Assembly (NCBI GenBank): GCA_903891475.1
Contig: CAITEP010000021.1
Span: 62,001-126,000 of the forward strand
DNA from: an uncultured Mucilaginibacter sp.
GTDB lineage: Bacteria > Bacteroidota > Bacteroidia > Sphingobacteriales > Sphingobacteriaceae
Direction of reading: 5' to 3'
Length of the DNA: 64,000 nt
Positions 14,332-16,903 of the stretch are shown here, one piece after another. The notes beneath the pieces were generated by a model. It searched no databases. It saw only the letters and a program-made list of their open reading frames with translations, and had not been told where the DNA came from. A program made the translations under genes and the position numbers. Every line of letters begins with the position of its first letter. Position 1 is the first letter of the stretch.

Positions 14332-14518
14332 AAGTTCAATTTTTATATTTAGTCGTTCTCAAAAGAAATAAACGATAAGATAAATTGAGATCATCCCACA
14401 ATTTTATAAAAATTGGGACTATATATGATTTGGGACAAAAAATGAAAATTTAATCAATAGTAATAGATTCATTTAATGTTTGTGTAACTTTATAATATCA
14501 AACTATTGCAAGCGTTTT

Positions 14519-15532
14519 ATGAATTTTGATAAGGAAGCAATTAAAAAAGAGTATTTAAAACTGAAACTCCACTTAGGAAGACAGCCCGGAAGTAAAGAAT
14601 TTTATAAGGAAACGGGAATTTCTGAATACCAAGTCGTACAAAACTTCCATAAATACACATCCCTTATTGCTGAAATGGGTGATAGTCAAAAATCGTTCGG
14701 TGATAAATATTATGACGTAGAAGAATATTGGAATAATTATGGCGATTTGGCAAGGAAACTCAATAAGGTACCAAGTAGTTCAGAATGGTTATTTCATAAA
14801 TGTAAACCATTAAAAACGTCCTTTTTAAAAAAATTTGGAAAAAATTGGTCTGAACTACCCCCATTGTTTTATAACTATGCAATAAACAAACCGGAATGGA
14901 GTGATATAATTCATTTTTTTTCATCAGAGAAAGAAAGTGAATTAGTTGCCTCTATCGACAATAATCCACATATAGAATTTAAGTATCTTCAATTTCTACC
15001 TCCTATACTAAATAATTTTTTAACCTTTTCTACGCAAGAAGGGAAGAATAACGAATTTGAAAAACAAGTAAACTTAGTATTTCAAATGTTGGGATTTGAT
15101 ACTAATTATTTTGGACAAGGAACAGGGAGGAACCCTGATAGTATAGCAAAAGCATCCCAATTTGGTTATGCATTATTAATTGATGCTAAAGCAAGAAAAG
15201 AGGCCTATCAAATAGGCACGGAAGATCGAAAGTTTATAGAATATATCAAAACACATAGTAGTAATTTAAATAGAACAGGGCATAGTATTATATATTTTGT
15301 AATTGTTTCAAGTGAATTTAAATCTATTACGGAATCTTCTTTAAAAAATATCATGACGGAGACTAATGTTGTTACAACACTTTTTAAGGCATCTACCTTA
15401 CTCAAATTACTATCGAAGAAAATAGAATATCCGTCAACTTTGAATTTAGAAAGTATAAAGGGGCTATTCCTGAATTCTGGAATAATAACAGATAAAGAGG
15501 TTGATAGGCTGTTAATTAAATTAAAAGTGTAG
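14519..15532 (+). CDS. FokI-like nuclease with homing-endonuclease-associated repeats
   Basis: The frame is open from a TTG at 14480, but the ATG at 14519 is the likely start (337 residues); a TAACTTTA box at 14485-14492 lies between them. Residues 8-54 and 70-116 look like two homing-endonuclease-associated DNA-binding repeats (LGRQPGSKEFYKETG; LNKVPSSSEWLFHK...FGKNWSELP). Residues 178-265 resemble the FokI cleavage domain: Glu179/181, Pro206-Asp207 in GRNPDSIA, Asp222 and Lys224 in LLIDAKARK, and QIGTEDRKFIEYI, close to FokI PD...DTK spacing. No methyltransferase lies alongside. The gene is more AT-rich than its neighbours and sits next to transposon debris, which suggests transfer. Confidence 0.78.
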   Translation: MNFDKEAIKKEYLKLKLHLGRQPGSKEFYKETGISEYQVVQNFHKYTSLIAEMGDSQKSFGDKYYDVEEYWNNYGDLARKLNKVPSSSEWLFHKCKPLKTSFLKKFGKNWSELPPLFYNYAINKPEWSDIIHFFSSEKESELVASIDNNPHIEFKYLQFLPPILNNFLTFSTQEGKNNEFEKQVNLVFQMLGFDTNYFGQGTGRNPDSIAKASQFGYALLIDAKARKEAYQIGTEDRKFIEYIKTHSSNLNRTGHSIIYFVIVSSEFKSITESSLKNIMTETNVVTTLFKASTLLKLLSKKIEYPSTLNLESIKGLFLNSGIITDKEVDRLLIKLKV

Positions 15533-15570
15533 TAACAGACAAATTTTATACGGCAAGTTTTTTATGGATT

Positions 15571-15706
15571 ACGGTTCTGAGCGAAGGTAAGGCAGTTGTG
15601 TTATGAGGAACGAATTTCACTCCTGCCAGCGGCAGCGATGCTGGCGGCGGAATGAAACCCGCCGCGATAGTGTGCATGGCGTAATGAAGCCGCTTGCCGC
15701 AACTGT
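15571..15706. repeat. GC-rich hairpin element next to transposon remnant
   Basis: A short GC-rich island in AT-rich surroundings. CTGCC/GGCAG at 623-627 and 631-635 (of 15,000) form one hairpin, GCGGCGG at 15644-15650 pairs perfectly with CCGCCGC at 15659-15665, and CAGTTG near 15593 is mirrored by CAACTG near 15700. All three reading directions give low-complexity proteins rich in Ala, Arg and His, so I treat it as a non-coding repeat, MITE or structured RNA. Reading frames on both strands exist but look like by-products. Confidence 0.45.
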
Positions 15707-15810
15707 AGGGAATGCTTTGTACCACCATGTAAGGACTTTCTATTTGTGTCTCTTCGTCGATTTTTTACTCCGCTTGCCATCTGATATATCATTGGCTTTA
15801 TTTTTCGTAA

Positions 15811-16143
15811 TCTATACCTGATGCAAAGGTGGTAACCGATGTTTACAGGTCTTACAATGGTTTAAATGCCATATATAAACATGTATCAATCAAACATACA
15901 GAGGGTAATTATATTACTATTGGTGATGACCAAACAAACAATATCGAGGGTTATTGGTCATTACTTAAAAGAGGTATTATAGGAATTTACCATTTTGTAA
16001 GCCCTAAGCATCTTCATAGATATTGTAATGAGTTTGGTTACCGTTATAATACTCGCAAAGTTTCTGATGTTGCAAGGTTTGAAAATTGCTTTAACGAAGT
16101 AAATAACTTAGGTTTAACTTATGTCAATCTAATAGCCAAATAA
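15811..16143 (+). pseudogene. IS1595-family (ISXO2-like) transposase, C-terminal remnant
   Basis: The last 110 codons of a DDE transposase of the IS1595/ISXO2 group. The second catalytic Asp is in VVTDVYRSYNG and the Glu in NNIEGYWSLLKRGIIG, followed by the family's YHFVSPKHLHRYCNEFGYRYN. The frame upstream stops at 15808-15810, no start exists, and the N-terminal zinc ribbon and first catalytic Asp are missing, so it cannot be active. The junction abuts the GC-rich hairpin element. Confidence 0.9.
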
Positions 16144-16295
16144 TGGCAAAGAAAAAAGAAACAAAACCACGTCCGAAAACCTACGGAAAAAGTGCCCTTT
16201 AAATTAACAGCACTTTTGAGCAGGTTATTAAGGCTTCTTTTTGGGGGAAACCAAAAGAAGATAAAAAAGTTGAAGATGGTGCAGGAAGTTCTTGA
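16143..16295 (+). pseudogene. Frameshifted small companion ORF of the IS1595-type element
   Basis: ATG overlaps the transposase stop (TAATG) and starts MAKKKETKPRPKTYGK before a premature TAA at about 16202. In another frame the sequence continues as NSTFEQVIKASFWGKPKED up to TGA at 16293-16295. Joined by a frameshift near 16190-16205, the two parts make a basic peptide of about 50 residues like the small ORFs I recall behind Bacteroidota IS1595 transposases. The element is thus decayed in both genes. Confidence 0.65.
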
Positions 16296-16339
16296 GGTGG
16301 AAAATAATTTCTATATTGTAAGGCTAAAACCAAACCTCA

Positions 16340-16843
16340 ATGAACGACGATATTTATTTTGAGATACTAAAAAGACTGGCAAAATCAGGTTTAAATCAGA
16401 AGACTGACATTTCAGATTTATTAAGAATTTATTTATCAAATAATATTGATTTAGGGGAGAGCATTAAAAACGGTATTTACACATATCTCCAAAATATGGA
16501 ATTATACAGCCATATCGGATTTAAAAATAACACTGTAGTTTTTGAAGAAAATAATTTAAATGAGATTTCAGTATCAGCATGGATTTTACCAGCTGGATTG
16601 ATATTTTATCAACAAAAAATACAAATAGACGTTATTACAAATTCAAATAATTTAAGCAGGTGGAATATATTTGCCACTTTATGTTTAGCATTATTATCAT
16701 TATTAATTAGTGCATTCGGGGCTTACAAGCAAATTACAGATATGTCCTCCAAACAAGAGATAGAAACTTTAAAACTGAAAATTTTCCAGCAAGATAAAAT
16801 ATTATTACAACAGCATATACAAAAAAATCAAACCAATCATTAA
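16340..16843 (+). CDS. Small membrane protein with C-terminal coiled coil
   Basis: A 167-residue protein of unknown function. Residues 1-100 are soluble and mixed helix/strand, one clear transmembrane helix spans about 108-129 (WNIFATLCLALLSLLISAFGAY), and 133-162 form a Gln/Lys/Glu-rich coiled coil. It lies directly behind the transposon remnant, and its AT-rich codon use matches the FokI-like gene rather than the flanking housekeeping genes. I do not recognise a family. It could be cargo of the same acquired patch. Confidence 0.65.
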   Translation: MNDDIYFEILKRLAKSGLNQKTDISDLLRIYLSNNIDLGESIKNGIYTYLQNMELYSHIGFKNNTVVFEENNLNEISVSAWILPAGLIFYQQKIQIDVITNSNNLSRWNIFATLCLALLSLLISAFGAYKQITDMSSKQEIETLKLKIFQQDKILLQQHIQKNQTNH

Positions 16844-16903
16844 TTTTAATGAGTTTTTTAATCTTGTCTCAACTAATATATAGTTACCTAAAAAATTACT
16901 GAA

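What the first reader, a model, noticed from the sequence alone, without database searches (positions are those of the whole stretch)
14519..15532. Orphan FokI-like nuclease with two homing-endonuclease-associated repeats
Seen: two repeat units with the LGRxPxxxEF / FGxxWxxL pattern followed by PD-x14-DxK-type residues (Asp207, Asp222, Lys224) spaced almost as in FokI. FokI itself uses different DNA-binding modules. No methyltransferase or specificity gene is beside it, so either it is a solitary defence or mobile-element nuclease, or the modification gene was lost. The combination of domains is unusual.
Basis: partly seen in the sequence, partly recalled or inferred. Interest (0 to 1): 0.65.

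Follow-up and report, generated by a model that had tools for sequence, protein, structure and literature searches.

The report
Lone FokI-like nuclease with DNA-binding repeats
A bacterium carries a small, travelling, stand-alone enzyme that joins the DNA-cutting half of the restriction enzyme FokI to two small repeats known from homing-type nucleases, with no partner methylase found next to it; it is probably a one-gene weapon against foreign DNA, but nobody has tested it.

Summary
The ORF at 14519-15532 (+, 337 aa) is intact. Residues 3-122 form two related helical repeats linked by profile to Pfam HNH_repeat (HNR); residues ~153-337 are a FokI-type cleavage domain (Pfam E=1.5e-7, over cut-off; AlphaFold model against FokI Z 21.1, rmsd 2.4, 177 aligned). 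D207/D222/K224 align with FokI's catalytic residues and are invariant in 10 of 10 full-length members. The same two-part protein occurs sporadically in Mucilaginibacter, Chitinophaga, another genome of the window's family, and MAG contigs labelled Saccharibacteria, Spirochaetes, Verrucomicrobia and Nitrospirae. It is under purifying selection (dN/dS 0.13), GC-poorer than its surroundings in 10 of 10 loci, and no DNA methyltransferase was recognised beside it at 12 loci. It occurs on mobilizable or integrase-bearing elements, as an integron cassette, alone between housekeeping genes (lepA/folD; DUF58/mscS), and in the window perhaps inside a decayed 2.47-kb IS1595-type element. Best reading: a solitary, horizontally spread FokI-type endonuclease acting against foreign DNA without a linked methylase. 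Homing is disfavoured: two members with 87% identical repeats sit at unrelated sites. How the host is spared is unknown. New variant of a known kind; no functional data.

The parts
14519..15532 (+). Gene for the solitary HNR-HNR-FokI-type nuclease (337 aa)
   Evidence: dN/dS 0.13 against the M. flavus relative
14525..14710 (+). HNR-like repeat 1 (residues 3-64), helices 5-19, 25-32, 36-43, 46-52
   Evidence: E=2.7e-6 against repeat 2; helices; resembles TetR-type HTH units and SauUSI 616-669, Z 5-7, which may be only a common arrangement
14711..14884 (+). HNR-like repeat 2 (residues 65-122), helices 67-81, 87-92, 99-106, 110-121
14975..15529 (+). FokI-type cleavage domain (residues 153-337)
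15137..15139 (+). Asp207 codon (FokI D450 equivalent; FokI number recalled)
15182..15190 (+). Asp222-Ala-Lys224 codons (FokI D467-T-K469 equivalent; FokI numbers recalled)
14415..14438 (+). Candidate left terminal inverted repeat of a 2.47-kb element
   Evidence: found after the fact, moderate support
16864..16888 (-). Candidate right terminal inverted repeat
15829..16143 (+). C-terminal fragment of an IS1595-family transposase (104 aa; profile positions 81-153 of 153)
16340..16843 (+). 167-aa ORF of unknown function (GC 0.27) inside the same low-GC stretch, possible second passenger
   Evidence: no family match over a cut-off

Best explanation
A solitary, horizontally mobile endonuclease. Shown by sequence and model: two tandem HNR-type helical repeats followed by a FokI-type PD-(D/E)XK cleavage domain with an intact catalytic set; maintained by purifying selection; found without a linked methylase in several unrelated settings. 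Inferred: the repeats bind a DNA sequence, two molecules pair through their cleavage domains as FokI does and cut both strands near it, and the activity destroys incoming DNA (phage, plasmid or competing element), so that one gene suffices as cargo. Inferred and not shown: the host escapes because the target is long and absent or rare, is cut only when two sites or a foreign modification are present, or is covered by an unlinked methylase.
For: Cleavage domain. Catalytic residues invariant in 10 of 10. D236-R237 are also invariant in 10 of 10; D236 aligns with the Asp of FokI's IGQAD and R237-K238 with the Gln-Arg just after it, the place of FokI's dimer contacts D483/R487 (recalled). Repeats. 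Selection: dN/dS 0.13 overall, 0.074 in the repeats, 0.127 in the catalytic part (window against M. flavus), 0.10 between the two Chitinophaga copies. Horizontal spread: window protein 60% identical to Chitinophaga but 38% to the congeneric G116; 3 of 149 genus genomes carry it, at three different sites; GC below that of the surrounding sequence in 10 of 10 loci. Cargo settings: relaxase, NikA-like protein and serine recombinase near Chitinophaga copy L006, integrase and tRNA near G305's; integron cassette in L012. No methyltransferase recognised at 12 loci. FokI-like domains on other N-termini occur beside a type I specificity gene (L018) and beside a C5 methylase (L059). On the contig of the interrupted copy (G093) lies an AAA_15/AAA_21 ATPase gene of the kind seen in defence systems (that last remark recalled).
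Against: No activity, target or phage data exist. In the window, M. flavus and G116 the neighbours are housekeeping genes or mobile-element debris, not a defence island. PADLOC matches are weak or partial: PDC-S28 in 8 of 10 members, best E=7.2e-5; REase_II in G116's, E=1.8e-8; Cmr5 in L009's, E=1.5e-5, over the middle of the protein. One relative (G093) has an in-frame TGA and another (L011) is matched only over residues 223-336 at a contig end. The methylase motif scan flagged a 168-aa ORF in each Chitinophaga locus (NPPF or SPPF), with no similarity to the 9 methylase queries; I take it as chance. An unlinked cognate methylase is not excluded: of 8 methylases of three classes in the window's genome, 5 have a recognised restriction gene as the one neighbour scanned and 3 do not; type I methylases were not sought.
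Confidence: 0.58

Rival explanations
1. Free-standing homing endonuclease: the gene cuts alleles lacking it and is copied in by repair, which is why it can stand alone between housekeeping genes.
For: HNR is described by Pfam as homing-endonuclease-associated. Lone insertion between lepA and folD (20 of 20 sampled relatives have the two genes next to each other without it) and between a DUF58 gene and mscS (8 of 10 sampled relatives have these next to each other without it, 2 of 10 lack the DUF58 gene nearby). The flanks of 4 of 10 loci show inverted-repeat similarity at p<=0.058.
Against: Window and M. flavus proteins have 87% identical repeats with the lowest dN/dS of the protein (0.074), so the same target is expected, yet they sit at different sites whose 120-base flanks align no better than chance (426 and 476 of 500 shuffles score as well). 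12 of 110 other genes in the same loci also have flanking inverted repeats at p<=0.06. No relative confirmed in viral contigs or phage records. Other members lie on ordinary vehicles.
Confidence: 0.15
2. Restriction half of a split R-M system: an unlinked methylase in each host protects its target.
For: The window's genome has 8 methylases of three Pfam classes (1 D12, 1 N6/N4, 6 C5); the D12 one, one C5 one (L110) and one C5 one with an unrecognised 280-aa neighbour (L112) have no recognised restriction gene next door. PMC3488263 (abstract) predicts distant methylases for 57 of 272 solitary restriction genes.
Against: No linked methylase was recognised at any of the 12 loci (10 full-length genes, 1 interrupted, 1 partial); a single gene moving among phyla would need a matching methylase at every stop. 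The D12 methylase lies among short phage-like ORFs (by eye).
Confidence: 0.12
3. Modification-dependent (type IV or IIM-like) nuclease that cuts only DNA with foreign modification.
For: Explains the absence of a methylase and tolerance in many hosts; repeat 1 resembles residues 616-669 of SauUSI, an ATP-dependent restriction enzyme (Z 7.3, 54 aligned, rmsd 2.0).
Against: No known modified-base-reading domain appeared in the Pfam scans; a Z near 7 for a small helical unit may be only a common arrangement (note).
Confidence: 0.1
4. Decaying passenger without present function in this genome.
For: It lies in a low-GC stretch with an IS1595 transposase fragment and possible decayed element ends; one relative is interrupted.
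Against: Intact frame, full catalytic set and dN/dS 0.13.
Confidence: 0.05

Closest known systems
FokI (type IIS restriction endonuclease), cleavage domain PF09254
   Same: Cleavage-domain profile over the cut-off, fold (Z 21.1, rmsd 2.4, 177 aligned), PD...D-x-K residues, C-terminal position after a DNA-binding part.
   Different: FokI's own recognition domains are not matched; two HNR-like repeats (about 120 residues) take their place; 337 aa against 576-579 in the FokI chains; no linked methylase recognised.
Nt.BspD6I / R.BspD6I FokI-like nickase and small subunit
   Same: Same cleavage fold (Z 14-16).
   Different: Different N-terminal part; BspD6I is a two-subunit enzyme (title: heterodimeric).
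HNR (HNH_repeat, PF18780) proteins
   Same: The family profile finds proteins with strong PF18780 matches (G448 E=8e-23, G679 E=1.6e-13).
   Different: Those two show no FokI domain in Pfam; G679's, and G037's repeat protein, continue into other C-terminal parts.
PDC-S28 (PADLOC candidate defence protein)
   Same: Weak match of the nuclease domain near its C-terminus (8 of 10 members at E<=0.01).
   Different: Profile of 831-846 positions; the match covers about 65-165 of them.
Solitary restriction endonucleases surveyed in PMC3488263
   Same: Restriction-type gene without a nearby methylase.
   Different: The 21 type II cases there without any candidate methylase are all in orthologous groups with enzymes of annotated R-M systems (section read); in this family no member examined here has a recognised linked methylase.

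Membership tests
FokI-type cleavage domain (PF09254) | Profile match over the curated cut-off | tested here: met
   31.5 bits against 25, E=1.5e-7; 8 of 10 members match at E<=1
FokI-type cleavage domain (PF09254) | FokI fold | tested here: met
   2fok_A Z 21.1, rmsd 2.4, 177 aligned; Foldseek best E=4.3e-9
FokI-type cleavage domain (PF09254) | Catalytic D, D, K | tested here: met
   D207, D222, K224 aligned with FokI, invariant in 10 of 10
FokI-type cleavage domain (PF09254) | Dimerisation needed for double-strand cutting | not testable with these tools
   Only conserved D236-R237 at about the corresponding place
Type IIS restriction enzyme like FokI (whole enzyme) | FokI-type N-terminal recognition domains | tested here: not met
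   Pfam at E<=10 gives only FokI_cleav_dom, Mrr_cat and HNH_repeat; the full model's FokI alignment covers residues 143-328 only
Type IIS restriction enzyme like FokI (whole enzyme) | Linked cognate methyltransferase | tested here: not met
   None recognised in the window or at 11 further loci (6 to 21 kb each) by phmmer with 9 methylases plus a motif scan; independent control found (C5 gene of L059); two chance-like motif hits in Chitinophaga
HNR / HNH_repeat (PF18780) | Curated cut-off reached by the window protein | tested here: not met
   13.3 against 26 bits; genome search with the family found none at E<=0.001
HNR / HNH_repeat (PF18780) | Profile relationship to certified members | tested here: met
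   Family profile matches G448 and G679 repeat proteins, E=9.5e-7 and 3.4e-5 in one genome each; those proteins score 81 and 51.2 bits with PF18780
HNR / HNH_repeat (PF18780) | Tandem repetition | tested here: met
   Repeat 1 against repeat 2 E=2.7e-6
Homing endonuclease | Gene lies in its own recognition site; members with the same specificity share the site | tested here: not met
   Window and M. flavus copies (repeats 87% identical) lie at different sites with unrelated flanks; the target itself is unknown
Homing endonuclease | Intact empty sites in relatives | tested here: met
   lepA-folD 20 of 20, DUF58-mscS 8 of 10; the gaps there vary in length and content, so the exact insertion point was not fixed
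Type IV / modification-dependent nuclease | Modified-base-reading domain | tested here: inconclusive
   None in the Pfam scans; repeat 1 resembles a SauUSI segment weakly
Integron gene cassette (locus L012 only) | attC site directly after the gene | tested here: met
   73-nt site at L012:6845-6917 overlapping the stop codon, hairpin z -6.85 as DNA, 0 of 200 shuffles as good; integrase gene not sought
IS1595-family element (window) | Transposase, terminal inverted repeats, target duplication | tested here: inconclusive
   Transposase fragment only; candidate ends 18 of 21 alike, reached by 7 of 500 shuffles and about 10 of 2000 placements; the pattern made from them is matched twice in 4 of 100 shuffled windows; flanking 8-mers 7 of 8 alike, as in 7 of 12544 local pairs; five plasmid relatives gave no matching ends

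The most novel reading that the evidence does not exclude
A natural, modular 'repeat plus FokI' nuclease family: short HNR helix-turn-helix-like units act as an interchangeable DNA-reading array, fused in nature to FokI-type and to other nuclease parts, spread as one-gene immunity that needs no methylase. It would be a natural counterpart of engineered zinc-finger and TALE-FokI nucleases, with its own rule for sparing the host.
Probability: 0.2. Interest if true: 0.75.

Novelty: new variant of a known kind. Interest (0 to 1): 0.48.

Why it matters
FokI's cleavage domain is a workhorse of genome engineering, but (my impression, not surveyed) few natural architectures that use it are described. 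A compact natural fusion to HNR repeats, alone and mobile, makes two questions testable: how HNR repeats read DNA (no HNR protein stood among the 7 PDB sequences hit), and how a type II-like nuclease can live in many hosts without a linked methylase.

Tried and rejected
Homing at a palindromic site: the flanks of the M. flavus and G116 copies looked like arms of intergenic palindromes. An ungapped test on 13 loci found little; a gapped test gave p<=0.058 in 4 of 10 loci, but 12 of 110 other genes in the same loci also reach p<=0.06; not claimed. For L010 the start used in these tests was approximate, as its frame is open further upstream.

Lost methylase: rejected as the main account, because none was recognised at 12 loci. 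The HsdM match of L018 is the query finding itself and no control; the C5 gene of L059 is the independent control. A FokI_cleav_dom survey of the phylum (3 of 296 genomes, the window's included) shows the domain is rare; that profile search may not list more distant forms. NCBIfam scans gave nothing useful; PHROGs gave a weak unnamed family in 4 of 10 members, over the repeats in the window's. Fold search among viral proteins gave low-TM matches, some named restriction endonuclease. The IS1595 ends could not be confirmed on five plasmid relatives. Rfam: nothing in the window, one tRNA in six loci. The attC search in five other loci gave only sites inside long ORFs of L008 and L010 and none in L009, L015 and L017.

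Literature: no paper held both 'FokI' and 'homing endonuclease associated repeat'; PF18780/HNH_repeat is in one paper (PMC8078820, one passage seen). The listings of the other searches showed no description of this fusion; they are listings only. 'Not in print' holds only for those searches of one open-access library. PMC3488263: abstract and two sections read. PMC11092175, PMC7371123, PMC3129680: passages only.

Left out before counts: G093 (in-frame TGA) and L011 (fragment) are not in the 10-member alignment; for the window site 14 of the 15 other genomes with the upstream gene were fetched (G348 at a contig end was not); for lepA/folD 20 of the 38 other genomes with folD; for mscS 10 of the 41 genomes with a match.

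Full report
What is there. The gene at 14519-15532 (+) encodes 337 residues. Pfam places residues 168-297 in FokI_cleav_dom over the curated cut-off (31.5 against 25 bits, E=1.5e-7), with sub-threshold matches to Mrr_cat (residues 177-229) and HNH_repeat (residues 5-47). No NCBIfam model matches. A phmmer search of PDB sequences with the single protein finds nothing useful, but the family profile finds FokI (1fok E=7.9e-8; 2fok E=1.4e-7) and aligns the PD...D-x-K residues. An AlphaFold2 model (mean pLDDT 82.3, pTM 0.55) aligns with FokI over residues 143-328 at Z 21.1, rmsd 2.4, 177 residues; the next matches are the BspD6I nickase (Z about 16) and its small subunit (Z 14.4).

The N-terminal part. 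Residues 3-64 and 65-122 are related to each other (hhalign E=2.7e-6, probability 76%). Each is a small helical unit. Links to certified HNR proteins come through the family profile, which matches proteins in G448 and G679 that score 81 and 51.2 bits with HNH_repeat, with three and two stretches. Structural look-alikes are TetR-type HTH units and a SauUSI segment at Z 5-7, none with a Foldseek E-value under 0.001, and the sequence profile has a marginal match to a segment of sigma-28 (E=0.0055); these point to a helix-turn-helix-like DNA-binding unit but do not prove it. G037 has a protein with the same N-terminal repeats (27% identical) and a different C-terminal part, so the parts look exchangeable.

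Relatives. The labels are those of the records and may be wrong for single contigs. That the window's genus is Mucilaginibacter is inferred: the hit in congeneric G760 has the same contig coordinates and identity as the M. flavus record. Invariant motifs include GQGxGRxxD, D-x-K-x-R and GTxDRxFxEY. Distribution is sporadic: 4 of 151 genomes of the family (two with the full protein, one with it interrupted by a TGA, one with the repeats only), 5 of 300 of the order (three full, one cleavage domain only, one repeats only), 3 of 149 of the genus, all full, and in the phylum sample 5 of 395 with any part, of which only the window's own is full. No relative was confirmed in viral contigs or phage records; there is one plasmid match to the nuclease part, in an archaeon.

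Selection and transfer. Window against M. flavus: dN/dS 0.13 overall, 0.074 in the repeats, 0.294 in the linker, 0.127 in the catalytic part; the two Chitinophaga copies: 0.10. The window protein is closer to Chitinophaga (60%) than to the congeneric G116 (38%). GC content is below that of the surrounding sequence in 10 of 10 loci, clearly in most (window 0.304 against 0.378 for the whole window; M. flavus 0.295 against 0.418; L009 0.296 against 0.524), weakly in L012 (0.602 against 0.632).

Where it sits. In G116 it stands alone between lepA and folD (gene identities); 20 of 20 sampled congeneric genomes have those genes next to each other without it, with gaps of varying length and content. 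In M. flavus it stands alone between a DUF58 gene and mscS; 8 of 10 sampled relatives have those next to each other without it, with gaps of 6 to 1180 bases. Near the Chitinophaga copy L006 are a relaxase, a NikA-like mobilization protein and a serine recombinase (L007 has the same set by eye); near G305's a tyrosine integrase and a tRNA. In L012 it is an integron cassette with a 73-nt attC overlapping its stop codon. In the window it follows a 248-aa gene; 14 of 14 fetched relatives with that gene lack the nuclease after it, and what follows the gene there differs. The stretch 14415-16888 (GC 0.315) is bounded by candidate inverted ends and by 8-bp flanks alike at 7 of 8 positions, contains an IS1595 transposase fragment and a 167-aa ORF, and may be a decayed element with passengers. 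IS copies carrying passenger genes are mentioned in PMC3129680 (passages seen), which cites the IS1595 family paper (not read) for it. Against: five distant IS1595 relatives showed no matching ends, no further copy turned up in the loci held, and the end pattern was chosen after seeing it; shuffled windows match it twice in 4 of 100 cases.

No partner methylase recognised. Nine methylases as phmmer queries and two motifs found none at 12 loci with the gene (10 full-length, 1 interrupted, 1 partial; the 11 besides the window hold 6 to 21 kb each) nor among the window's ORFs of at least 100 aa; the C5 methylase beside the FokI-like gene of G463 was found as an independent control (304 ORFs, part of the window counted twice, some from loci without the full gene). 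Two 168-aa ORFs in the Chitinophaga loci carry an NPPF or SPPF string but match no query. The window's genome does have 8 methylases of three classes: MvaI/BcnI-, Eco47II-, NgoFVII- and MutH-type genes lie beside four of the C5 ones and a ResIII gene beside the N6/N4 one; two C5 genes and the D12 gene have no recognised partner (one neighbour scanned for seven of the eight, none for the D12 gene). Type I methylases were not sought.

Interpretation. The anatomy is secure. That it is a maintained, mobile, stand-alone nuclease is well supported by conservation and context. That it acts against foreign DNA is inference, favoured because restriction-type single genes are kept across unrelated vehicles and hosts, and because homing fails its main test: near-identical DNA-binding repeats at unrelated sites. 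How the host is protected is open; PMC3488263 lists absent target sites, silent or inactive enzymes and unknown methylases among the options for solitary restriction genes.

Verdict. Not an ordinary R-M gene and not an artefact; a new variant of a known kind (a FokI-type nuclease with HNR repeats as the putative DNA-binding part). Interest is moderate because function and target are unknown.

Noticed in passing
L018:7980-9332 (G151) and L057:709-2070 (G493): FokI-type cleavage domains on another N-terminal part (alike by eye); L018 lies in a stretch with a type I specificity gene (Pfam) and HsdM/HsdR-like ORFs (by eye), L057 directly after an ORF that looks like HsdM by eye: a possible second FokI-based accessory of type I systems.
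   Followed up: partly
L059:1429-3021 (G463): 530-aa protein with a FokI-type C-terminal domain (23.8 bits, just under the cut-off) directly beside a C5 methylase: a candidate type IIS-like R-M pair.
   Followed up: partly
L060:853-1746 (G679) and L019:3512-4384 (G037): HNR-type repeats fused to C-terminal parts other than FokI; G037's gene sits near a relaxase gene. Their C-terminal parts have PD-(D/E)XK-like residues by eye and no convincing Pfam match.
   Followed up: partly
L058:1240-2403 (G448): 387-aa protein with three HNH_repeat stretches and no recognised nuclease domain, ending in a part with weak HTH matches.
   Followed up: no
lepA-folD intergenic region in loci L076-L095: The gap between lepA and folD varies widely between species and often holds palindromic repeats or a longer, coding-like stretch (by eye, for example L083-L086), as if it were an insertion hot spot.
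   Followed up: no
window 15540-15830: A higher-GC stretch (0.454) between the nuclease and the transposase fragment that I could not read as transposase in any frame; origin unknown.
   Followed up: partly
G000 contigs C21, C31, C10, C48, C36, C43, C32: The window's genome is rich in R-M genes: six C5 methylases, a type III-like pair and a D12 methylase, the last among short phage-like ORFs (by eye).
   Followed up: partly
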